Shown here: piece after piece, positions 47,819 to 60,203 of the stretch
How the letters are laid out: every line of letters begins with the position of its first letter
Numbering within the stretch: position 1 is the stretch's first letter
Source: Thermosulfuriphilus ammonigenes
Lineage (GTDB): Bacteria; Desulfobacterota; Thermodesulfobacteria; Thermodesulfobacteriales; ST65
DNA: 64,000 bases
Assembly (NCBI RefSeq): GCF_011207455.1
Contig: NZ_CP048877.1
Coordinates: 426,576-490,575 of the forward strand
Direction: 5' to 3'
Program-made: the position numbers and the translations under genes
The notes under the pieces: generated by a model
The model's database searches: none
What the model saw: only the letters and a program-made list of their open reading frames with translations
Told to the model about the DNA's origin: nothing

Positions 47819-48219
47819 AAAACTCTCCTTTACATTTATTTAAAGCCAAACTTACTTTGAATTAACTCTTTGTCAAGAAAATTTCTAAAAAATTTTAAGG
47901 CCCTTTTTAGGTTTGGATTAAGATATTTGAGAGATTTTAGTAAAAAAATAGTCTTTTTTAAAGATTTTTTTAAACAAGAGGGGCTATCAATCAAATTTTT
48001 CGAATATTTTCCTATAGACCGATCCCTTCTTCTCCCTTAGCCCTCAGGATCTCCGGACCAAAGTGGACTGAATATGGCTTCAAAAACCTGAAATTGCCAA
48101 GGGAAAGGTTTTTGGATAGGACAACAGGGGATGATGTTTGGTAAATGGGTGTACAGGAAGTGCCAAATGATTCCGTAGAACCCGAATTTACGCAGGGAAG
48201 AACCGTAAGGAAGAGGAAA
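47819..48219. other. AT-rich divergent region between katG and the defence island
   Basis: It holds no convincing gene. TTGACA on the minus strand (47876-47871) may be the -35 of katG, but no good -10 is at the right spacing. T-rich sequence (47880-48010) follows. The GC content rises again at about 48150. The helicase frame is open from 48145, but those 25 codons are probably not translated. Confidence 0.35.
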
Positions 48220-51123
48220 ATGCTTACCTGGGGCTCGATCGTACGATTTAGAAAAAGGGACTGGGTACTCCTTCCCAGCCCTCAAGAAAATGTTATCGCC
48301 TTACGGCCTCTTACCGGAGCCACCGACGAAACAGTCTTGGTGCATCAGCAACTAGCCAATCTTCTGGGATACAGCTTCCCTGAGGAGAGAATTTTCCCCT
48401 CTTCCTTCCCTCCCCCTTCTCCTGATGAAGTTTCAGACGCCTTGGGAACCCATCTTCTCTGGCAAGCAGCCCGGCTGCTTCTGCGCGACGGCGCGGCCCC
48501 TTTTCGTTCCCTGGGGCGGATCTCCATCCGGCCCCGGGTCTATCAGTTTGTTCCCCTGCTCATGGCTCTTCGCCTTGATCCGGTAAGGCTTTTCATCGCC
48601 GACGACGTAGGAGTGGGAAAGACTATCGAAGCTTTACTCATTGCCAGAGAGCTTATTGATCGCGGCGAGGTTTCCCGCCTGGCGGTCCTCTGCCCACCTT
48701 ACCTTTGCGATCAATGGGAAAAAGAGCTAAGAGAAAAATTCAACCTTGAAGCCGTAACCGTACAAACGAGCACCATTGGGCGGTTGGATCGCCTAAAGCC
48801 CCGCCACAAAAGCATTTACGAATATTTCCCCTATCTGGTGATCAGTATTGACTGGGTTAAAACCGAGCGAAACAAGTATCAATTTCTCCAGTTCTGTCCC
48901 GAGCTGGTCATTGTGGACGAAGTTCATGGGGCGGCGGACACCGCAGGGCGCAACCGCGCCCAGCAATTAAGGCACCAGCTACTAAGAGAGATCGCCGACG
49001 ACGAAAAAAGACACCTCATCTTGCTTACTGCCACCCCGCACAGCGGTGTAGAGGAGGCCTTCCGCTCTTTGCTTGGCCTGCTCCGGCCGGAATTCCAAGA
49101 CTGGAACCTGGGATCGCTCACCGAAGAGCAGCGTAAACTCCTGGCCAAACATTTCGTCCAGCGCACGCGGAAAGATATCGAAAGTATCTGGGAGGCTGAC
49201 CGCTGTTTCCCTGAGAGGATATCCCTGGAACGGACTTATAGACTCTCCCCGGTGTATTGGGATCTCTTTCGCGAGACCTATCATTACTGCACCGAAATAG
49301 TCAAAACCGGCCCGGGTCTGGAGGACCGCAGGACCCGCGTTCGTTATTGGGGAGCCCTGGCCCTTTTGCGCTGTGTGATGTCAAGCCCGGCTGCCGCCGT
49401 AGCCGCTCTTGAGGCTCGCCGCTCCGCCAAAGACAACTCCTTAACCGAGCCGGAGGACTCTTCTGTCGAAGACGAGGCCTATCAAGGCTTTGTTTATGAA
49501 AGTGCCGACCAGATGGTGGAAGACGAAACCCCTGTGCCCCCTATTGAGGAAAGCGAAAAATACCTTCTTGAAAGCGAACGCCGCCGCTTGAAAAAACTCG
49601 AAAAACTGGCCCGAAAGCTCCTTAATTCCCCCGAAGACACCAAGCTTAAGAAATGTCTTGAGGAAGTTAAAAATCTCCTTTCCGAAGGGTTTTATCCCGT
49701 TATCTGGTGTCGTTACGTGGCCACGGCAGAATATGTGGCCAAGGCCCTGGAGGATGTTCTCCCCCGGGAGGTGCAGGTCGTTTGTCTCACCGGGCGTGTC
49801 CCTGAAGAAGAAAGACGCTTTAAAATCGAAAACCTTGATCCTGATAAACCCCGGGTTTTAGTGGCCACGGATTGTCTCTCTGAAGGCATAAACCTGCAGG
49901 AGAAGTTTAACGCCGTAATCCATTACGATCTTCCCTGGAACCCCAACCGCTTAGAACAGCGCGAAGGCCGGGTAGATCGTTACGGGCAAAAGCTTTCTCC
50001 CCAAGTTAAGGCCATTCTTCTTTACGGTGAAGACAACCCGGTAGATGGAGCGGTGATCAAGGTCCTCCTTGAAAAGGCCCGGGAAATCTACAAGACCCTG
50101 GGCACTCACGTCCCCGTGCCTGAAGAGAGCGAATCCGTAATGCAGGCGGTCATAAACGCCCTCTTTCTCAAGGGAAAAGGCGAGGATCTACGTCAAAAAG
50201 AGCTCTTTGATTATGCCTCCCTTCCGCCGGTCAGGGAGTTTCATCAAAAATGGGATTTGAGCCGGGAGCGGGAGCGTATAAACCGCACCCGGTTCGCCCA
50301 ACGGGCCTTAAAGCCCGAAGAAGTAAAACGTGAGCTTGAAGCCACCGACGAAGTCCTTGGCGATCCAGAGGCGGTCAAAAACTTTGTCCTCTCGGCGGCT
50401 AAGCGGCTGGGGCTTGATCTCCGGCCTGACCCTAAGGAAGAAGACGTCTTTCTGGTAAACCTTACCCCGGAGGCCTTAAGCCTCCTCCCGGAAGCCATCC
50501 GGGCCGAACTTCCCCGAGAGAAAGAGCGCTTTTGGCGGATCAGTTTTGTCTCGCCCACCCCACAGGGCGCGGAGTATATAGGGCGCAACCACCGTCTGGT
50601 GACCGCTATGGCCCGTTTCCTTTTTGAAGAAGCCCTCACCAAAGGGCCAGAAGCCCGCGCTCCCCGGGGCGGAGTAATCCGCACCAGTCTCGTCAACCGC
50701 TTAACGGCCCTTCTGCTTCTAAGGGTAAGGTATCTGTTGGAGATCCCCCAAAAGAGCCCGCTCCTTGCCGAAGAAGTGATGGTGGAGGGCTTTACCCTTG
50801 GCCAAAACGAGCTTCTCGGCTCCCAAAAAGCCCTTGATCTTCTTCTCAAGGCCAAACCCGAGGGCAACGTTCCTCTGCCGGAGAAAAAAGAACTCCTTTC
50901 TTTGGTGTTAGAAGAGCTTGAACCCTGGTCTTCCAGGGAGGATAACCGCCCCCTGCAAAAGGCTCTCAAGGCAAAGATTCTTTCCCGGGCCAAAGAACTT
51001 GAAGAAAGCCACAAACGCATCCGTCGCGCGGTTTCTTTGCGGATAAAGGAGCTCAAGGTTAGGCCTCAATGGCCGCCGGATCTCCTCGGCCTTTTAATCC
51101 TGCAACCAATGGTGAGAGGATGA
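48220..51123 (+). CDS. SNF2-type helicase, DrmD-like
   Basis: This superfamily 2 ATPase has 967 residues. It shows motif I 'DDVGVGKT' (128-135), motif II DEVH (233-236), motif III 'TATPHSG' (270-276) and motif VI 'QREGRVDRYGQ' (about 580-590). A long helical C-terminal part follows. SNF2-like DrmD of class 1 DISARM has the same size and stands before a large adenine methylase, as here. The ATG at 48220 has AGAGG just upstream; an ATG 25 codons earlier is less likely. The stop overlaps the methylase ATG (ATGA). The DISARM role is inferred from neighbourhood. Confidence 0.88.
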   Translation: MLTWGSIVRFRKRDWVLLPSPQENVIALRPLTGATDETVLVHQQLANLLGYSFPEERIFPSSFPPPSPDEVSDALGTHLLWQAARLLLRDGAAPFRSLGRISIRPRVYQFVPLLMALRLDPVRLFIADDVGVGKTIEALLIARELIDRGEVSRLAVLCPPYLCDQWEKELREKFNLEAVTVQTSTIGRLDRLKPRHKSIYEYFPYLVISIDWVKTERNKYQFLQFCPELVIVDEVHGAADTAGRNRAQQLRHQLLREIADDEKRHLILLTATPHSGVEEAFRSLLGLLRPEFQDWNLGSLTEEQRKLLAKHFVQRTRKDIESIWEADRCFPERISLERTYRLSPVYWDLFRETYHYCTEIVKTGPGLEDRRTRVRYWGALALLRCVMSSPAAAVAALEARRSAKDNSLTEPEDSSVEDEAYQGFVYESADQMVEDETPVPPIEESEKYLLESERRRLKKLEKLARKLLNSPEDTKLKKCLEEVKNLLSEGFYPVIWCRYVATAEYVAKALEDVLPREVQVVCLTGRVPEEERRFKIENLDPDKPRVLVATDCLSEGINLQEKFNAVIHYDLPWNPNRLEQREGRVDRYGQKLSPQVKAILLYGEDNPVDGAVIKVLLEKAREIYKTLGTHVPVPEESESVMQAVINALFLKGKGEDLRQKELFDYASLPPVREFHQKWDLSRERERINRTRFAQRALKPEEVKRELEATDEVLGDPEAVKNFVLSAAKRLGLDLRPDPKEEDVFLVNLTPEALSLLPEAIRAELPREKERFWRISFVSPTPQGAEYIGRNHRLVTAMARFLFEEALTKGPEARAPRGGVIRTSLVNRLTALLLLRVRYLLEIPQKSPLLAEEVMVEGFTLGQNELLGSQKALDLLLKAKPEGNVPLPEKKELLSLVLEELEPWSSREDNRPLQKALKAKILSRAKELEESHKRIRRAVSLRIKELKVRPQWPPDLLGLLILQPMVRG

Positions 51124-54100
51124 AGATCTTTCCCGCGGTGCGCATGGAAGGCGGGCTTTTCGCCCCGGATCTCTTTGAAAGGGTTATCAACCAGGACCTT
51201 CCCGGCCAAAAACCAGCAGATTTTGGCCTCTCCTCGCGCCAGGACCTCATTAACGAGATAGCCGCGGTCTTTGCCGACGCCCGCTCCCTTTGGGAAATCT
51301 TCAAGCATCGCCTCGAAAGGCTACCGAAAGAAGCGCGAGGGGAACGCCTCCCCCGCCTCACCCGGGAATATTTAGCCATTCCCCTGCTTGGTCTTCTGGG
51401 CTATGAGCTTTACTCAAACCACCCCCACTATTACAAATACAAAGAAGGCGGGCTTACCTTCCGCATCTCCCACCGCGCCGGGGAAGACCTTTACGCCCCT
51501 CCGGTCCACATCGTCTCCTTTGAACAACCCTTGGGGCAGCTCGCGGAGAGATCGCGCTTTTCGCCCCACTCTTTGGTCCAGGAGTTTCTTAACCGCACCG
51601 AGGCCCTCTGGGGCCTGGTGACCAATGGCAGGGTGATCCGTCTCCTGCGCGACAGCACTTACCTCCGCCGCCAGTGTTATCTTGAATTTGATCTGGAGGC
51701 CATCTTTGAGCAGCACCTTTTCGAAGATTTTTTGCTCCTTTTCCGCCTCCTGCACCGCAGCCGCCTCCCCAGGGGCGCTGAAGACGCCTCCCAGTGTTTG
51801 CTTGAGCAGTACTACCAACTTTCTCTTGAAGAGGGTGAACGGGCCCGCGACCGCCTGCGCGACAGTGTGGTCTCCTGCCTCACGGAGCTGGCCCAGGGCT
51901 TCCTCAGCCACCCGGAAAATAACAGGCTCAGGGAGCGCCTCTCCTCCCCGGACGACTCTTACAACGCCCTGGCCTTCTACCGCGATCTCCTGCGGCTCAT
52001 CTATCGCTTCTTGTTTCTCCTGGTGGCGGAAGACCGCGGGCTCTTAAGTGACGATCCCCTCTATCGCGAGCACTATAGCGTCTCCCGCTTCAGACGCTTG
52101 GTGGAAAACCGCTCCTTTTACACCGAGCATGAGGATCTCTGGCTTTCGCTCCGCGTCCTCTGGAAACTTTTAAGCGACGCCACCCCGAAGGCCGGGGGCA
52201 GGCCCCTGGCCTCCTATCTCGGGCTAAGCCCTTTGAACGGCGAGCTTTTCTCCCCGCTCTTTCTGGATGAATGCCTCATTCGCAACCGGGAGCTCCTTTC
52301 GGCCCTCTGGTGGCTTCTTAACTACCGGGAAAGCGGGGCCGACCTTCCGCACCGCATCAACTACGCGGCCCTGGATGTCGAAGAGCTTGGCTCGGTTTAC
52401 GAAAGCCTTCTAGACTATCAGCCTACGGTCACCAAAAAAGAAGGCCAGGTTCTAACCTTTGAGCTCAATCCCGGCACCGAACGCAAATCAACCGGCTCCT
52501 ACTACACCCCTGCGCCGCTGGTAGCGGAGCTCATCCGCTCCGCCCTCGAACCCGTAATCAAAGAACGCCTCAAGGAAGCCAAGCGAATAGCGAACGGGGA
52601 ATGGCGAACAGCAAACTATTCGCTATTCGCCGCGAAGGCCATTCTTGGCCTTCGCATCATCGATCCGGCTTGTGGCTCCGGACATTTTCTTTTGGCTGCC
52701 GCCAGAAGGCTTGGCAAGGAGCTAGCCCGCATTGAGACTGGGGAAGACGAACCCTCCCCAGAGGCCGTGCGCAAGGCGGTGCGTGAGGTCATCGCTCATT
52801 GTATCTACGGGGTGGACAAGAATCCCCTGGCGGTTGAACTTTGTCGCGTGGCCCTGTGGATCGAAGCCCACGTCCCCGGAAAACCCCTCACTTTTCTTGA
52901 CCACCACATCAAATGCGGGGACTCTCTGGTTGGCGTTTTTGACCTTAACGTGCTCACCCAGGGCATCCCGGATGAGGCCTTCAAACCCCTTGAAGGAGAC
53001 GAAAGGTCCGTCTGTCAGGAACTTCGGAATACCAACAGGAGAGCCCGGAGGAGACTTTTCGGGGAGAGTCTTTTTAACCCCAGAGGAGAAATAGAGAAGC
53101 TGGCGGAAGAGTTCCGCAAGGTGGACGAACTTGCCGAAGACACGGTGGAGGCCCTCCACGAAAAGACCGCTCGTTGGCAGGCCCTGCGCCGAAAGCCCGA
53201 ATGGGAAAAGCTTAAACGGGCCTGTGATCTCTGGACTTCGGCCTTTTTCATGCCCAAGACCCAGAAAACCACTTCCTTGGTGCCCACTTCGCACGATCTC
53301 TATGGTCTTTTAGCCAACCCCGGCGCCCTTTCTCCCCAGAAGCTTGCCCAGGCCGAGGCCCTGGCCGAGAAGCACCGCTTCTTCCACTGGCCGCTTGAGT
53401 TTCCCGAGGTCTTTGCCCGGGGCGGCTTCGATGTGGTTCTGGGAAATCCGCCCTGGGAAATGATGCAACTTGAAGAAGTTCAATTTTTCGCCACACGTGC
53501 TCCAGAAATAGCCCAGACCAGAAATTCAGCAGAGCGGAAAAAGTTGATTAATAAATTGAAAGAAACCAATCCAGCACTGTATGAAGAATATTTAAAAGCC
53601 AAACATTACCAGGCGGCTATCAATCATTACATCCGTAAAAGTGGGCGCTTCCCATTAACTGCTTATGGAAAGTTAAATACCTACAGCGTCTTTGCCGAAC
53701 TGGCCCTGCGGCTCACCTGCCCCGCGGGCCGAGCCGGCATCATCGTTCCCACCGGCATCGCCACCGACGATACGAATAAACATTTCTTTAGCCACCTCAT
53801 GGAAAACGGCCTGCTTGCCAGCCTTTATGATTTTCAGAATAGGGAAAGGCTATTCCCAGCCGTAACCACTCAACAAAAGTTTTCTCTCCTCACTCTTCAC
53901 CATTCATCTTTTCTCCCCTCTCCCTCTGGGAGAGGGGTTGGGGGTGAGGGTCCCTCGCCAAAATTCGTCTTTTTCGCCATCCGCGTGGAGCATTTAAGAG
54001 ACCCGCGGCGCAGCTTCACCCTCACGGCCGAGGACATCGCCCGCATAAACCCCAATACCCGCACCACCCCCGTCTTCCGCACCAGCTACGACGCCGAGCT

Positions 54101-55391
54101 GACCAAAAAGATCTACCGCGTCCCGGTCTTGGTGAACGAAAAGACCGACGAAAATCCCTGGGGCGTTTCCTTTAAGCAAGGTTTGTTCAATATGTCCTCT
54201 GATAGCCACCTCTTCCGCACGCGGGAGCAATTGCAGGCCGCAGGGTATGAGCTTAAAGGGAACATTTTTGTGAAAGCGAATAGCGAACGGCGAACGGGGA
54301 ATAGACCACTCGCTACTCACCATTCGCCACTCGCCGAAATTTATTTGCCCCTCTACGAAGCCAAAATGATCTGGCAGTTCGACCACCGCTTCGGGAGTTA
54401 TGAGGGTTTGGAGAGACGCTCACATCAATTATTCCATCCAGATCCAAGGCACAAAAGAATCTTCGATTTTGTTGTTCAATCTTGGTATTGGGTCCCGGCG
54501 GGAGAGGTGCTTCAACATTTAGAAAACAAGAGAAACTTAGGTTGGCTAATCGGTTTTCGGGATGTTGCGCGCGCTACAGATGAACGCACCGCCATCTTCA
54601 GCCTGCTGCCAAAGGTGGGAGTGGGGCATACCATGCCTTTAATTTTTTTATCACCTCAGAGTGTTTTTATCGCTTGTATATTGGCTAATTTTAATTCTTT
54701 GGTTTTTGACTTTTGTGTTCGTCAAAAACTCGGGGGTACTCATTTGACCTATCACTATCTCAAACAACTCCCCATCCTCCCACCCGAAATCTATACCACT
54801 CGCCACTTACTATTCGCCATTCCCCGCATCTTAGAGCTCACTTACACCGCCTGGGATCTAAAGCCCTTTGCCGACGACCTCTGGGCCGAGGCCGATGAAG
54901 ACCTCCGCTCCGCCATCCGCAAACAATGGGAGGAAAATCAGCGAATAGCGAACGGCGAACAGGGAATAGCGAACGGAGAACAGGGAACAGGTCCGAAGGA
55001 CCGCAACCATTCGCCACTCGCCATTCGCCATTCGCCCCCCGAATGGCTTGAGATCATTTACTCCCTTAATCCTGACCATCCCAACAAGGACGCCTGCCCC
55101 CTTCCACCTTTCAAGTGGGACGAGTCTCGCCGCGCCCGCCTCCGCGCCGAACTCGACGCCTTCTTCGCCAAACTCTACGGCCTCACCGAAGAAGAACTCC
55201 GCTACATCCTCGACCCCCAGGACGTCTTCGGCCCCTCCTTCCCCGGCGAGACTTTCAGGGTTTTAAAGGAGAAAGAAATCCGCCAATTCGGCGAATACCG
55301 CACCAAACATCTCATATTGGAGGCGTGGGAGAGGCTATTCAAAGATCAAGGGGGAAAATGGGAGGGTTGCTTGAATGAGAGAAGAATTTGA
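51120..55391 (+). CDS. Large Eco57I-type adenine-N6 methylase, DrmMI-like, with in-frame repeat insertions
   Basis: This 1423-residue DNA methyltransferase has SAM motif I 'DPACGSGHF' at D515 and catalytic motif IV 'NPPW' at N776. A long helical N-terminal region and a C-terminal target-recognition region flank the core. DISARM class 1 DrmMI methylates host DNA so that the helicase complex ignores it. The ATG 51120 overlaps the helicase stop by four bases. Five stretches (about 52583-52630, 53913-53957, 54276-54343, 54797-54829, 54941-55036) are palindromic repeats translated in frame, adding Arg/Asn/Gly/Ser/His-rich inserts between conserved blocks. The gene may still work, since no stop or shift is introduced. 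Confidence 0.88.
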   Translation: MKIFPAVRMEGGLFAPDLFERVINQDLPGQKPADFGLSSRQDLINEIAAVFADARSLWEIFKHRLERLPKEARGERLPRLTREYLAIPLLGLLGYELYSNHPHYYKYKEGGLTFRISHRAGEDLYAPPVHIVSFEQPLGQLAERSRFSPHSLVQEFLNRTEALWGLVTNGRVIRLLRDSTYLRRQCYLEFDLEAIFEQHLFEDFLLLFRLLHRSRLPRGAEDASQCLLEQYYQLSLEEGERARDRLRDSVVSCLTELAQGFLSHPENNRLRERLSSPDDSYNALAFYRDLLRLIYRFLFLLVAEDRGLLSDDPLYREHYSVSRFRRLVENRSFYTEHEDLWLSLRVLWKLLSDATPKAGGRPLASYLGLSPLNGELFSPLFLDECLIRNRELLSALWWLLNYRESGADLPHRINYAALDVEELGSVYESLLDYQPTVTKKEGQVLTFELNPGTERKSTGSYYTPAPLVAELIRSALEPVIKERLKEAKRIANGEWRTANYSLFAAKAILGLRIIDPACGSGHFLLAAARRLGKELARIETGEDEPSPEAVRKAVREVIAHCIYGVDKNPLAVELCRVALWIEAHVPGKPLTFLDHHIKCGDSLVGVFDLNVLTQGIPDEAFKPLEGDERSVCQELRNTNRRARRRLFGESLFNPRGEIEKLAEEFRKVDELAEDTVEALHEKTARWQALRRKPEWEKLKRACDLWTSAFFMPKTQKTTSLVPTSHDLYGLLANPGALSPQKLAQAEALAEKHRFFHWPLEFPEVFARGGFDVVLGNPPWEMMQLEEVQFFATRAPEIAQTRNSAERKKLINKLKETNPALYEEYLKAKHYQAAINHYIRKSGRFPLTAYGKLNTYSVFAELALRLTCPAGRAGIIVPTGIATDDTNKHFFSHLMENGLLASLYDFQNRERLFPAVTTQQKFSLLTLHHSSFLPSPSGRGVGGEGPSPKFVFFAIRVEHLRDPRRSFTLTAEDIARINPNTRTTPVFRTSYDAELTKKIYRVPVLVNEKTDENPWGVSFKQGLFNMSSDSHLFRTREQLQAAGYELKGNIFVKANSERRTGNRPLATHHSPLAEIYLPLYEAKMIWQFDHRFGSYEGLERRSHQLFHPDPRHKRIFDFVVQSWYWVPAGEVLQHLENKRNLGWLIGFRDVARATDERTAIFSLLPKVGVGHTMPLIFLSPQSVFIACILANFNSLVFDFCVRQKLGGTHLTYHYLKQLPILPPEIYTTRHLLFAIPRILELTYTAWDLKPFADDLWAEADEDLRSAIRKQWEENQRIANGEQGIANGEQGTGPKDRNHSPLAIRHSPPEWLEIIYSLNPDHPNKDACPLPPFKWDESRRARLRAELDAFFAKLYGLTEEELRYILDPQDVFGPSFPGETFRVLKEKEIRQFGEYRTKHLILEAWERLFKDQGGKWEGCLNERRI
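52583..52630 (+). repeat. In-frame palindromic repeat, copy A
   Basis: GCGAATAG (52583-52590) is inverted as CTATTCGC at 52616-52623 and 52623-52630, with GCGAAC/GGCGAA units between. It is translated as 'RIANGEWRTANYSLFA', about 26 residues upstream of SAM motif I of the methylase. Confidence 0.85.
53913..53957 (+). repeat. In-frame palindromic repeat, different family, copy B
   Basis: CCCCTCTCCC (53915-53924) and GGGAGAGGGG (53928-53937) form a perfect 10-bp palindrome with a TCT loop, followed by TTGGGGGTGAGGG. The translation 'LPSPSGRGVGGEGPSP' is unlike the methylase around it. It is a different repeat from copies A, C, D and E. Confidence 0.85.
54276..54343 (+). repeat. In-frame palindromic repeat, copy C
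   Basis: GCGAATAGCGAACGGCGAAC units at the left are matched by inverted CACTCGCTACTCACCATTCG units at the right. The insert is translated as 'ANSERRTGNRPLATHHSPLA', within the target-recognition half of the methylase. Confidence 0.85.
54797..54829 (+). repeat. In-frame repeat, half copy D
   Basis: Only the right-arm type is present (CCACTCGCCACTTACTATTC followed by GCCATTCCCC), translated as 'TTRHLLFAIPR'. It may be a partial copy. Confidence 0.65.
54941..55036 (+). repeat. In-frame palindromic repeat, copy E (longest)
   Basis: Two left units (GCGAATAGCGAACGGCGAAC, then a close copy from 54964) are joined through a GGTCCGAAGGACC palindrome to right-arm units CCATTCGCCACTCGCCATTC. It is translated as 'RIANGEQGIANGEQGTG' and 'NHSPLAIRHSPP', near the methylase C-terminus. 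Confidence 0.9.
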
Positions 55392-55469
55392 AGAAAGTGT
55401 CAAAAGAAAAATCAAAGTTCTATGGTGGCAGTTGGTCCAAGTGAACTCAAGCCTTTTTATTTTGGAAAA
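55392..55469. other. Short AT-rich spacer after methylase
   Basis: The GC content falls sharply after 55391, marking the left edge of the AT-rich insert that reaches about 60200. No gene or clear terminator was seen here. Confidence 0.4.
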
Positions 55470-56111
55470 AATAATTAACTTTCCATGAGATTTGTTTTTC
55501 CCCAAGCCCTCATTCACTTTTTGGGAGCTTACTCTAAAGAAGTTTTATGACACATGTGTCCTGATAATTTTCAGAATAACAGAAAAAGATCTTAAAAAAA
55601 ATTAAGTTTGCAGTAGATAATCGCGGAAATAAAGTGTCTAAAATTAGAAAACTACTTGAAAAATGTAGATGAAACAAACAAGAAAGTTCTAGTGATTAGG
55701 CATAATGAAATAGCACATTTGCAAATGGATGACTGATCGCAAAGTGCGTCAAAAATATTCGTTTAATATAGATACGTTGAATAGGTTAACAAAAAATTTG
55801 AACATGGTTTTTTGTGAAATTTGCAAATTGTTTAATCAAGATAGAGGACTTGTTTTGTGGGGATTAGACGATGAGATGGAAGAAATTATGGATAGCATTG
55901 CAAAACAAAGCCCTTTAATAAGGATGCCAGAAGATCAGCCAGACTATTGGGAGGTCTATAAGAAAGAATTGAGCATTGATGACCTTAATATTCTCAACCA
56001 TTATCGCGGTAAATTTGGCTTGCCATATGTGTGAGATCCATATCATACTGGAGTTTATAAAGTTGCCAAAAGGCTTTGGAAGAAACCAAAATACTATTTG
56101 AAAGTGTATTA
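55470..56111 (+). pseudogene. Decayed HEPN-like (AbiU2-type?) gene
   Basis: Fragments in all three plus frames line up as one protein. They read 'FFPKPSFTFWELTLKKFYD' to a stop after an A-run near 55605; then 'DNRGNKVSKIRKLL'; then 'NYLKNVDETNKKVLVIRHNE' continuing IAHLQMDD to a TGA near 55734. The last is a 101-residue frame (55729-56034) starting 'MTDRKVRQKYSFNIDTLNRL'. R-H-N-E-I-A-H fits the Rx4-6H motif of HEPN ribonucleases, and the F-W opening with N-K-V-S pattern recalls AbiU2-type proteins. After the stop at 56034 the same frame continues to 56111 ('YHTGVYKVAKRLWKKPKYY'). At least three frame shifts make it inactive, unless the last frame is expressed alone. Confidence 0.5.
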
Positions 56112-56481
56112 AATATAATCTTCAAAGAAGCTTAGGAGGATAAAAAGAGGTATAGGTGGGCGAAGCTGGGGGATGCTAAGTTTTTTAAAATATAAATTAG
56201 TTCAACGCCTAAGACGGGTGTAAAAGAGTATTGGGAAAGGAGCACTAAATGGCTAGCGCCAAAAGACTTAGGTAAAAGTCAGGAAATATTATGTTAATGA
56301 CACTGAACGAAAAATAGCAAAAGAAGGGGTTAAAAGTTGTTCAGCTTCTTTAGTCTCAAAAGGTAGTATTGTTATATCAAAAAGAGTACTATTGTATATG
56401 TATTTTATATGTATGATATTCTTTCCGAAGCTATATATTTCAAAGAAAGTATTTTAAACAAAGCCTTTAGGGGGCGTCGCT
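56112..56481. other. AT-rich intergenic stretch before the KAP gene
   Basis: Only short broken frames are seen and no promoter can be named with confidence. GGGGGC lies 8 bases before the GTG start of the next gene and is the likely ribosome binding site. Confidence 0.4.
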
Positions 56482-58401
56482 GTGAATAGTCAGTATCAGC
56501 TAAGGTTTTTAGATGACTGCCCTGTATTTGAAGATAAAATCGGATTGCACAATAATATTGCTAAAAGTATAAAGAATATAATTGCTTTGACTCATGCCAG
56601 CAAGGAAAATGGTCATAAGAAGAAAATAATAGGTCTCTTTGGTTCTTGGGGCTCAGGTAAATCTACTGTAGTAGAGATATTAAAACAAGAATTAGGAGAT
56701 AAGAAGATATTTATATTTGATTCATGGTCCCACAGGGGAGATTTTCTAAAGAGAGCTTTTCTATTAGAATTGGCAAATAAGTTAGGAGTTAAGGAGGAAG
56801 AATATAAACAAGAGATCGGTAATGGTAAACTAACTATGGAAACTGTCTTAACAAGAAAAGTAATAAATAGGATTATTGATTCTAAGCCATTATCAAAGCT
56901 AGATAAACCTATCAAATACTTAACATCTATACTGATATTATCAGTTATAATTATTGCTCTTACTAAAATCTTGAGATACCTAATACTGCCTTTGGTTCCA
57001 AATAATTTGGTTGATCGCTGGGATAAATTCGCGCCTAAATGGATTATTCTCGTGATTCTCACATTGTTAATTCTTTGGAAAAGAAAATTTATAAGTCAAG
57101 TATTAAGTGATTTTATAAATTTTTACTTTTTAAGAAAAGCAAATATTACAGAATCTCACACAACAAAAGAAGATTTAGAATTCACAAATTATGATTACGA
57201 AAAATACCTATCTGATATTATTAAAATAGCAAAAGAGAAAAACAAGTTCGATACAAATAGTCCGTTCATTATAGTTTTTGATAACATAGACAGGGTAGAA
57301 GATGAAACTGTCTTGAATACACTCTCTCTAATACAACTGACAAACGAAGCTATAAGCAAATCCAAATTTAATAATATTTACTTTCTTATACCCATAGATA
57401 AAGAGCGCCTTAAGAAAACTGTAAAGACAATAATTGCAAAAAGTGATTCTGATGATGGGGAAAGAGAAAAGTTTGCACGTGATTTCTTAGAGAAAATTTT
57501 TCCTTACAAGATTACTATACCAAACATTAGTCACACAAATTGGAGGGAATTCTTTGTGGAACTAATAAAGGAAGCTTTCAGCTCTTCAAGTATTTCTGAA
57601 AATGACATATTATTTATTAGACGCTTATTTGAACAAGCTATTATTGAATCAAATACTAATCTTACTCCACGGGAGATTAAAAACTTTATAAATAGCCTCG
57701 TTGAAAATTATATTTATTGGCAAAACTTTGAAAAAGCTCCAGATTTGAAACTTCAAGCTTTATTTGTAATACTTAATAATTATCTAAGTGAAGAATTAAA
57801 AGGATTTATAGATAAATTTGAAGAGTCTAAAAGCTTTGAGAAAGTTATACAATCAGTCAATGGGAATAATGCCGATAGAAGCAGTAAAAGTGGTAGTTTT
57901 GAGAAAATTAAAAAAATTATAGACATTGCTAAAAATGAATTTACTGAAAAAGAAGTTCTTGCATCTTTACTAAAACAATTTTATAGAACAGATAAAATAT
58001 ACACACTATTTGTTGAACAATTTAATAATGCTATCAATACTAAAGATGTGGACACCATAAATAAAATAGTTGAACTGCTTGGAGATAAAGATAAGATTAT
58101 TGCTTTAATTGATGCAGCCATAGAGTCAAAGAGTGATTATGAGCAGGATATAAACTTACTACTCAAGCTTATATTTTCCTTTCAGAAATCTAAGCTAAAA
58201 GTATATAATACATATAATACTTATGAAACATTTATTATCACATCCTTAAAGGATATAATTGCTGATATAGAGGAGTTGTCTAAGCTGGATATTTCTAACG
58301 TGAATGAGTTTAAATACATAATAGATTCTAATACAGAAATCAGGAATATGTTTATAGAGAAAAGTGCAGAAATCATAACGCTTACTTCAAAGGAGGAATA
58401 G
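56482..58401 (+). CDS. KAP-family membrane P-loop NTPase
   Basis: This 639-residue NTPase has Walker A 'GSWGSGKST' (54-62) and Walker B 'FIIVFDNIDRVED' (262-274). Two membrane helices (about 148-175 and 188-206) lie between them, the hallmark of KAP NTPases, which are anchored in the membrane with the NTPase in the cytoplasm. A long helical C-terminal part (about 330-639) is Lys/Glu/Asn-rich. The start is GTG 56482. KAP proteins recur in bacterial defence and toxin-antitoxin neighbourhoods. Base composition is far more AT-rich than in the flanking genes, a sign of transfer. The next gene begins one base after its stop. Confidence 0.88.
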   Translation: MNSQYQLRFLDDCPVFEDKIGLHNNIAKSIKNIIALTHASKENGHKKKIIGLFGSWGSGKSTVVEILKQELGDKKIFIFDSWSHRGDFLKRAFLLELANKLGVKEEEYKQEIGNGKLTMETVLTRKVINRIIDSKPLSKLDKPIKYLTSILILSVIIIALTKILRYLILPLVPNNLVDRWDKFAPKWIILVILTLLILWKRKFISQVLSDFINFYFLRKANITESHTTKEDLEFTNYDYEKYLSDIIKIAKEKNKFDTNSPFIIVFDNIDRVEDETVLNTLSLIQLTNEAISKSKFNNIYFLIPIDKERLKKTVKTIIAKSDSDDGEREKFARDFLEKIFPYKITIPNISHTNWREFFVELIKEAFSSSSISENDILFIRRLFEQAIIESNTNLTPREIKNFINSLVENYIYWQNFEKAPDLKLQALFVILNNYLSEELKGFIDKFEESKSFEKVIQSVNGNNADRSSKSGSFEKIKKIIDIAKNEFTEKEVLASLLKQFYRTDKIYTLFVEQFNNAINTKDVDTINKIVELLGDKDKIIALIDAAIESKSDYEQDINLLLKLIFSFQKSKLKVYNTYNTYETFIITSLKDIIADIEELSKLDISNVNEFKYIIDSNTEIRNMFIEKSAEIITLTSKEE

Positions 58402-58402
58402 G

Positions 58403-60130
58403 GTGAAGTATGAACGTAAGCTTACTTTTATAAAAGCCTTGGCAGAATTAGATAAATTAATAAATATAAGAAATGAACTTGCTAATAAGTTACAAAAGAA
58501 ATTTGAAGAATTAGATATTAACCAGAAAGAATTAATAATTTTAGATTTAGTTGAAGCAGCGTCTTCCCATGAAGCATTCATAGAACCTATTATTAATATC
58601 AAATCTTTAAATATCGGGGAGATTATAAACTTAATAAATAATAGAATAACAAATAACCTTAACTTCTTAAAAGAAATAGATGATCGGTGTTATACTCTGC
58701 TTAAAATCCTATTGAAATTGAAAAGGTTAGACATTAATTGCTCAATAGATTTTATAAGAAGGCTCCATACATTAATTCAGGAGCTTTTCAGTCAAAACAT
58801 TATTTGGAATTACTGGAACAACCCCAATAATCCAAACTATCAAAATCATATCGTTAATTATCTATTCAGGAACAAATCTTTAGTTGACTTAATGGCAATA
58901 CACACAATAAATATTTATAGACAAGAAAAAGATAAGTCGGAAAATTCTAATACTTTGCAACAAATTAGGAATTTTGAAAAGTTCATCATTTCAGTATATT
59001 TACGTATGGCTCAAAAGATTGAAGAAACGAGGAATACATTGGCACCTCTATCAATAATATCTATAATTTTGGATTTATCTGCTGAAGTCCAACCTATGGC
59101 TAATTTCGGGAATATTAATTTAAAAGAAGTATATGGAGCGGTTGTTAATTATAAAAAGCTTGATAGTACTTTAACCGAGTATTTATCACTTTTATATAAT
59201 ACTGCTCTTATATATGGTTTTCTGGACGAATTAGAACAACAATGGAGTCACATATCCGATGGATATAAATCTTTTATTTTGGAATTAATATTGGATGAAG
59301 CTTTCTATACAGACAAAATGTTAGTTGATTATTATATTTTGCTAAGCAGAAATATCCATGAAAAATACGAAAACATTATTTTGCACAAAAACAAAAAAGA
59401 TAAATTCTGGTATAAAAATATAGTAATAGATAATTTAACTCGGAAGGAGAATAATAAGCTTAGTATAATTCATAAAGAAACAATTAGATTTTTACTTTCA
59501 GATATCTTAAATAAAGAGTGGTTGAGAGAAGATGATATAACTCAAAAAGTAAAAGAATTTATTAAGAAACATATTTCAAAGATTTTTGAAGAAGATTATA
59601 TTTATAGCATGCTTGAGCTGTTAGTGACATCTAAGCAGAGATTAGATGTTGACTATACTTCAGACAATTTTGGTCAAAAAATTTTAGAAAATTTCATAAA
59701 TGTAAATGATAATAATTCCCATATATTGGAATTTCTTTTTGCTAATGCAGAATATATACTAAAGAAAAAAGACATTTTAAGGCTAATAAGGAAAATTATT
59801 GAGGAGTTAAGTAAGGAGTTGTCAAAAACACAAGAGGACCACATTAAACTTTTAGGAGAAGCAAGACATCTTATCAACAATATAGACATAGATTTAATTG
59901 AAAGAGTTTTTGATAAGCTAATAGACATTAAAGACAATGCTACACCTTATAAACTTTTTCTATTGATTATTGAAGAAAATAAACAAACATTGAACAATGA
60001 ATTTATAAAAGATATAAAAGATAAACTTAACAATATTAAAGAACATTCTAACGATGAAGAAACTATTAAAACTATAGATGCAATACTTGAGCACTTGGAG
60101 GACAGTTCTAATGCCCATCAACAAAGCTAA
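58403..60130 (+). CDS. Unrecognised 575-residue partner of KAP NTPase
   Basis: I do not recognise this protein. It appears all-helical, highly charged and rich in Ile, Leu, Lys, Asn and Glu, with heptad-like stretches ('FIKALAELDKLINIRNELAN' at the start, 'LEHLEDSSNAHQQS' at the end). It has no membrane helix, no cysteine cluster and no nuclease motif that I can see. The GTG start lies one base after the KAP stop behind GGAGG, so the two genes form an operon. It could be a sensor, effector or scaffold acting with the KAP NTPase. Composition matches KAP and not the flanks. Confidence 0.75.
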   Translation: MKYERKLTFIKALAELDKLINIRNELANKLQKKFEELDINQKELIILDLVEAASSHEAFIEPIINIKSLNIGEIINLINNRITNNLNFLKEIDDRCYTLLKILLKLKRLDINCSIDFIRRLHTLIQELFSQNIIWNYWNNPNNPNYQNHIVNYLFRNKSLVDLMAIHTINIYRQEKDKSENSNTLQQIRNFEKFIISVYLRMAQKIEETRNTLAPLSIISIILDLSAEVQPMANFGNINLKEVYGAVVNYKKLDSTLTEYLSLLYNTALIYGFLDELEQQWSHISDGYKSFILELILDEAFYTDKMLVDYYILLSRNIHEKYENIILHKNKKDKFWYKNIVIDNLTRKENNKLSIIHKETIRFLLSDILNKEWLREDDITQKVKEFIKKHISKIFEEDYIYSMLELLVTSKQRLDVDYTSDNFGQKILENFINVNDNNSHILEFLFANAEYILKKKDILRLIRKIIEELSKELSKTQEDHIKLLGEARHLINNIDIDLIERVFDKLIDIKDNATPYKLFLLIIEENKQTLNNEFIKDIKDKLNNIKEHSNDEETIKTIDAILEHLEDSSNAHQQS

Positions 60131-60150
60131 AACAAAGCATAGAGTAATAC

Positions 60151-60186
60151 ATCGGTGTGTTTTTTCTGCGATCGGTGTGTTTTTTC
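60151..60186 (+). repeat. Two direct copies of a 16-bp repeat at the AT-rich border
   Basis: ATCGGTGTGTTTTTTC occurs at 60151-60166 and 60171-60186, a 20-bp period, just after the end of the 575-residue gene and where GC content rises again. It may mark a recombination border, or the T-run may act as a terminator signal for the KAP operon. Confidence 0.7.
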
Positions 60187-60203
60187 CTACTCAGATTCAT
60201 CGC

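What the first reader, a model, noticed from the sequence alone, without database searches (positions are those of the whole stretch)
52583..55036. Five palindromic repeats translated in frame inside one methylase gene
Copies of a GCGAATAGCGAAC-type hairpin repeat (A, C, D, E) and one CCCTCTCCC/GGGAGAGGG repeat (B) lie inside the coding frame without a stop or shift and add stretches such as 'RIANGEQGIANGEQGTG' and 'SPSGRGVGGEG'. Such repeats are normally intergenic. Five hits in one gene and none noticed in the rest of the window suggest either a mobile repeat that favours this gene or a region tolerant to insertion. I recall similar peptides in other bacterial proteins but cannot check this here.
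Basis: seen in the sequence. Interest (0 to 1): 0.72.

Follow-up and report, generated by a model that had tools for sequence, protein, structure and literature searches.

The report
In-frame heptad hairpins in defence methylase
A bacterial defence methylase carries four hairpin-shaped selfish DNA repeats translated as loops of the protein, and unrelated bacteria have independently acquired different repeats in the same loops, which points to a recurrent landing site and to a link with a poorly understood element built around the S23 gene.

Summary
Four of the five repeats are real. A, C and E are imperfect hairpins of 7-bp units (GCGAATA/GCGAACG against TATTCGC/CATTCGC), and B is a CCCTCTCCC/GGGAGAGGG palindrome. 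All are in frame inside a 1440-aa DISARM/PglX-like methylase. D is not an insertion: homologues have the same length there, and it models as core helix (pLDDT about 95). The complete 2.29-Mb genome holds the heptads and the B palindrome nowhere else. Three unrelated genomes also hold GCGAAY heptads only in their copy of this gene. Across 90 homologous loci, in-frame heptads and CCCTCTCCC palindromes are over five times (mostly over ten times) more frequent, per base, in this methylase than in other coding DNA; most other coding hits lie in the partner helicase. Different repeats occupy the same loops in different phyla (at least nine changes on the tree). Modelled loops B, C and E fall to pLDDT about 50; A dips less. 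Unexpectedly, S23/IVP genes are flanked by inverted heptad arrays in about half of unselected loci (13/25; PIN control 1/21). Best reading: A, C and E are ORF-less copies of S23-type hairpin elements tolerated in permissive loops. Precedents: Rickettsia palindromic elements; Coxiella IVS heptamers. Mobility, and why this operon is favoured, remain inferred.

The parts
51069..55391 (+). Host gene: adenine-specific DNA methyltransferase (Eco57I / DrmMI-like), 1440 aa; motif I DPACGSGHF at residues 532-540, NPPW at 793-796
   Evidence: model resembles BrxX/PglX and M.TaqI-type methylases
48145..51123 (+). Partner SNF2/DEAD helicase (best PADLOC DpdE 7e-176, DrmD 2e-88), overlapping the methylase start
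52583..52630 (+). Insert A: heptad hairpin GCGAATAGCGAACGGGGAATGGCGAAC..CTATTCGCTATTCGC, read as RIANGEWRTANYSLFA, just before methylase motif I; absent from G023
53916..53950 (+). Insert B: CCCTCTCCC-TCT-GGGAGAGGG palindrome with GGGTGAGGG tail, read as PSPSGRGVGGEG; G023 has a heptad stretch (CATTCGCCACTCGCCATTCGCC) at this site instead
54276..54338 (+). Insert C: heptad hairpin, read as ANSERRTGNRPLATHHSPLAE; the same loop holds heptads in HRbin29 and CCCTCTCCC palindromes in L050 and L094
54797..54825 (+). 'Repeat D': NOT an insert; conserved core helix (YTTRHLLFAIPRI) whose DNA resembles four in-phase heptads
54941..55037 (+). Insert E: left heptad arm (seven units), central mini-hairpin GGTCCGAAGGACC (54990-55002), right heptad arm; read as RIANGEQGIANGEQGTGPKDRNHSPLAIRHSP
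   Evidence: same loop carries heptads in L041, L042, L100 and L101

Best explanation
A, C and E are ORF-less copies of a hairpin-forming selfish repeat built from 7-bp units. B is a copy of an unrelated GC-rich palindrome. Each inserted in frame into a loop between conserved blocks of a helicase-linked defence methylase, where the extra peptide is tolerated. Shown: position, frame, hairpins, absence from the rest of the genome, loop location in the model, and recurrence of different repeats in the same loops in distant bacteria. Also shown: S23/IVP genes elsewhere are flanked by inverted heptad arrays, the same layout as insert E with a gene in place of its short centre. Inferred: that heptad hairpins are the minimal form of S23-type elements; that this gene acquired them in another host (or an ancestor) that had such elements and then moved; and that they are neutral passengers kept open by selection for a working methylase. 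Why this operon is hit more than other long genes is not explained.
For: Genome-wide exclusivity to this gene. The same exclusivity for GCGAAY heptads holds in HRbin29 (3/3), Gammaproteobacterium L100/G439 (2 forward + 2 reverse, matching the in-gene copies) and Chloroflexota G548 (1/1, methylase 59% identical). Period-7 hits in 90 loci: methylase 27 in 346 kb (13 loci), other CDS 4 in 808 kb (3 loci), non-ORF 17 in 208 kb; periods 5, 8, 10, 11 and 13 gave none in the methylase. CCCTCTCCC-type palindromes: 11 in 9 methylase loci, 4 in other CDS (2 loci), 1 non-ORF. Locus-level binomial p = 3e-5 and 6e-4; most other-CDS hits lie in the partner helicase. Same loops, different repeats; at least 9 changes on the tree. 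Model pLDDT drops to about 50 at B, C and E and to about 75 at A, but is about 95 at D. S23 genes have heptads within 250 bp in 14/22 and 13/25 loci, against 1/21 PIN controls; 21/28 have inverted partners. All five homologue loci holding an S23 gene also have heptad-like methylase inserts; in four it adjoins the methylase. Coxiella's IVS has tandem heptamers before its S23 ORF, varying in number (PMC4990558).
Against: The methylase has genome-like GC (0.551; window left part 0.552), so composition gives no sign of recent import. No genome rich in GCGAAY heptads, i.e. a plausible donor, was found among 395 + 350 sampled genomes. The window genome and HRbin29 have no S23 gene. Heptad sequence varies from locus to locus, so common descent of the units cannot be shown. 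No transposition event or empty site in a sister strain was seen.
Confidence: 0.62

Rival explanations
1. Functional contingency locus: 7-bp units are not a multiple of 3, so gain or loss of a unit shifts the frame and switches the methylase on or off (phase variation).
For: Heptad number before the Coxiella S23 ORF differs between strains (PMC4990558). Cyanobacterial homologues carry perfect arrays such as L071. Some homologues are broken near insert sites: L095 at site C by four copies of another palindrome containing stops.
Against: The window arrays are short and imperfect (three to seven diverged units), which disfavours slippage. The CCCTCTCCC palindromes cannot slip this way yet are similarly enriched. 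Breaks inspected in L090, L037 and L034 show no heptad at the break.
Confidence: 0.12
2. Gene-directed mobility: the repeats, perhaps with S23 or another nuclease, insert preferentially into this operon by sequence or structure recognition.
For: Heptads occur only in this gene in four unrelated genomes. S23 genes adjoin the methylase in L039, L041, L064 and L071. A DUF559 nuclease ORF lies in frame between two CCCTCTCCC palindromes inside the L110 methylase.
Against: At least three unrelated repeat families use the same loops, which fits tolerance better than specific targeting. Insert positions differ in detail. No target motif was found.
Confidence: 0.15
3. Conserved functional linkers that look repetitive by chance.
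For: True of D.
Against: A, B, C and E are absent or different in homologues. No other period tested (5, 8, 10, 11, 13) gave any hit in the methylases, against 25 for period 7.
Confidence: 0.04

Closest known systems
Rickettsia palindromic elements (RPE; Ogata 2000, 2002, as reviewed in PMC10969869)
   Same: Palindromic repeats inserted in frame in protein-coding genes, adding peptides the protein tolerates
   Different: RPEs are about 150 bp, described for Rickettsia, multi-copy in their genome and spread over unrelated genes. Here the repeats are short, built of 7-bp units, absent from the rest of the genome, and concentrated in one operon across phyla.
23S rRNA intervening sequence (IVS) with S23p ORF (Coxiella, Leptospira; PMC4990558)
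   Same: Hairpin element with inverted terminal arms and tandem heptamers beside an S23 ORF; the S23-heptad link is generalised here
   Different: IVS sits in rRNA and is cut out by RNase III; these sit in an mRNA and are translated.
Heptameric simple repeats of cyanobacteria and Xanthomonas (PMC4692102)
   Same: 7-bp units, imperfect arrays, many unit sequences
   Different: Described mostly as intergenic, direct, G-quadruplex-type arrays; here inverted arms inside a gene.
REP palindromes (GTAG/CGTC superfamilies, PMC3733652)
   Same: Short GC-rich palindrome like insert B
   Different: B lacks GTAG/CGTC tags; single copy in its genome.

Membership tests
Rickettsia palindromic element | Palindromic, in frame within coding genes | tested here: met
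Rickettsia palindromic element | Multi-copy family in the host genome, in unrelated genes | tested here: not met
   all genome copies lie in one gene
S23/IVS-type element | Terminal inverted arms with heptamers | tested here: met
   A, C and E
S23/IVS-type element | S23 ORF between the arms | tested here: not met
   no ORF between the arms; genome has no PF05635 match, (ORF-less IVSs are known, from general knowledge)
S23/IVS-type element | Located in 23S rRNA, excised by RNase III | tested here: not met
   located in a protein gene; excision not testable here
REP (GTAG/CGTC) | GTAG or CGTC tag at one end | tested here: not met
   sequence of B
REP (GTAG/CGTC) | Associated RAYT transposase | not tested
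DISARM class 1 | DrmMI-like methylase with SNF2 helicase partner | tested here: met
   (helicase scores even higher as DpdE)
DISARM class 1 | DrmA, DrmB core genes in the locus | tested here: inconclusive
   neighbouring ORFs scanned gave none; not every window ORF was scanned
Phase-variable contingency locus | Copy-number variation between strains | not testable with these tools
   no reads or sister strains

The most novel reading that the evidence does not exclude
Heptad hairpins are the mobile, ORF-less form of a widespread S23-encoding element class defined by period 7 and inverted arms rather than by sequence, and this two-gene defence operon is a recurrent in-frame landing site that carries them between phyla.
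Probability: 0.3. Interest if true: 0.82.

Novelty: new variant of a known kind. Interest (0 to 1): 0.62.

Why it matters
In-frame selfish palindromes are known mainly as a Rickettsia oddity. Here the same outcome is reached independently in many phyla, by unrelated repeats, in the same loops of one defence enzyme, giving a natural map of where this methylase can be enlarged. The statistical link between heptad arrays and S23/IVP genes gives a concrete, testable proposal for what those abundant, functionless-looking 7-bp repeats and the orphan S23 protein have to do with each other.

Tried and rejected
(1) D as an insert: rejected. (2) Recent import shown by composition: not supported, GC and GC3 genome-like. 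(3) A donor rich in GCGAAY heptads: not found in 395 genomes of the window's phylum or 350 of HRbin29's phylum. (4) Heptads causing the frame breaks in L034, L037 and L090: none at the breaks. (5) A known RNA family: only a sub-threshold mir-483 match on the opposite strand, taken as chance. (6) DUF559 as the general partner of CCCTCTCCC palindromes: only 3 of 13 loci had such a palindrome, so weak. (7) A plasmid search with insert E found 11 records; 10 had no annotated gene under the match and 1 lay in a polyketide synthase.

Full report
WHAT IS THERE. The gene at 51069-55391 (+) encodes a 1440-aa adenine DNA methylase: Eco57I domain 1.5e-20, PADLOC DrmMI 1e-84. It overlaps an upstream SNF2/DEAD helicase (PADLOC DpdE 7e-176, DrmD 2e-88). 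Motif I (DPACGSGHF) and NPPW are intact. The model of residues 430-1440 (mean pLDDT 86.7) is closest to the BREX methylase BrxX/PglX and to M.TaqI-like enzymes. Repeats A, B, C and E lie in frame and fold better than shuffled controls. E is built as a left heptad arm, a small hairpin GGTCCGAAGGACC and a right heptad arm.

D IS DIFFERENT. Homologues have the same length at D. The peptide is shared with G023 and partly with G007 and G009. It does not fold as a hairpin and lies in a confident helix. D is protein core, not an insert.

ABSENT FROM THE REST OF THE GENOME. The genome is a single contig of 2,287,345 bases, 100% complete. Every match to the three-unit heptad pattern (9 forward, 2 reverse) lies in A, C or E, and the only CCCTCTCCC..GGGAGAGGG palindrome is B. 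A second, more distant methylase copy at C1:1567050-1569185 therefore has none. The genome has no S23 gene.

SAME PATTERN IN UNRELATED GENOMES. In HRbin29, all three genome hits of the pattern fall within its copy of this gene, at the loops equivalent to C and E. In Gammaproteobacterium S012_21 the four hits match the copies in the methylase, near A and E. In Chloroflexota G548, drawn without selection, the single hit lies in a methylase 59% identical over its first 710 residues.

RECURRENT LOOPS, DIFFERENT REPEATS. Of 80 loci fetched from 84,980 genomes plus plasmid and relative loci, 67 full-length homologues were aligned. Insertions cluster at a few loops: residue 141 (Calothrix, Anabaena and Dolichospermum heptads), 456-460 (Chlorohelix heptads, L078 palindrome), A (Sphaerospermopsis, Dolichospermum, L100 and L101 heptads; L104 and L110 palindromes), 749 and 783 (cyanobacterial and Chlorohelix heptads), C (HRbin29 heptads; L050 and L094 CCCTCTCCC palindromes; in L095 a third palindrome family with stops), and E (L041, L042, L100, L101). 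L100, L042-C and L095 were read directly from DNA. The heptad label needs at least nine changes on the tree. Model confidence drops to about 50 at B, C and E; at A it dips to about 75.

ENRICHMENT. In 90 loci, period-7 hits number 27 in 346 kb of methylase, 4 in 808 kb of other CDS and 17 in 208 kb of non-ORF DNA, a 16-fold excess per base over other CDS. Periods 5, 8, 10, 11 and 13 gave none in the methylase. CCCTCTCCC-type palindromes number 11, 4 and 1, a 6-fold excess per base over other CDS. By locus (13 versus 3, 9 versus 2) both excesses are about ten-fold, with binomial p values of 3e-5 and 6e-4. Most other-CDS hits lie in the partner helicase (L032, L064, L071, L078). Caveats: this gene was singled out because of the window; thresholds were mine; other big defence genes were not tested as controls; some loci (Nostocales) contribute several hits.

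LINK TO S23 GENES. Two plasmid homologues had a four-helix-bundle (S23/IVP) gene beside the methylase with heptads around it, so I tested the link. Heptad arrays lie within 250 bp of the S23 gene in 14 of 22 loci from genomes chosen mainly for being heptad-rich, and in 13 of 25 loci from unselected genomes of the window's phylum. The figure is 1 of 21 for PIN genes in the chosen genomes. In 21 of 28 S23 loci the array has an inverted partner across the gene; 4 are direct. Unit sequence differs from locus to locus while period 7 stays. All five homologue loci holding an S23 gene have heptad-like inserts in the methylase, and in four the S23 gene adjoins it. Independently, the Coxiella IVS paper reports tandem heptamers just before the S23 ORF, varying in number between strains (PMC4990558). 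I found no paper stating the general link among those searched; only openly licensed papers could be searched.

MECHANISM. Shown: location, frame, hairpins, loop placement, recurrence, S23-heptad association. Inferred: A, C and E are ORF-less members of the S23-type element class, B is an unrelated palindrome, and all are tolerated passengers. The gene most likely acquired them where such elements were resident and was later separated from them by transfer or loss; composition neither supports nor excludes this. In the third forward frame each of the four elements has a stop, so the frames seen have passed a filter. The excess in this operon is unexplained; tolerance plus frequent transfer is my leading guess, directed insertion the more interesting alternative.

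Noticed in passing
L110 about 751-1220 (Spirulina sp. CS-785/01): A DUF559-type nuclease ORF lies in frame inside the methylase, between two CCCTCTCCC palindromes, at the loop equivalent to site A.
   Followed up: partly
L095 3700-3930 (Cuspidothrix): Site C holds four tandem copies of a third palindrome (GATCCCGGACTTCTCAAAGAAGTCCGGGATC) with in-frame stops, splitting the methylase.
   Followed up: no
S23/IVP loci L191-L220 and L264-L293: S23 four-helix-bundle genes are flanked by inverted 7-bp arrays whose unit sequence differs at each locus.
   Followed up: yes
window 55400-60200: Low-GC (29%) stretch with a KAP NTPase gene (PifA-like, 56482-58401) and an unassigned gene (58403-60130), next to the 55% GC operon; looks foreign.
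   Followed up: no
L179 (G548), 3799-base contig: Methylase with the same first 710 residues but a different C-terminal part, heptad placed after FPFPPEEY; suggests exchange of the target-recognition part.
   Followed up: partly
L078 4966-8001 (Chloroflexi MAG): The partner helicase gene itself carries three CCCTCTCCC palindromes in its open frame.
   Followed up: partly
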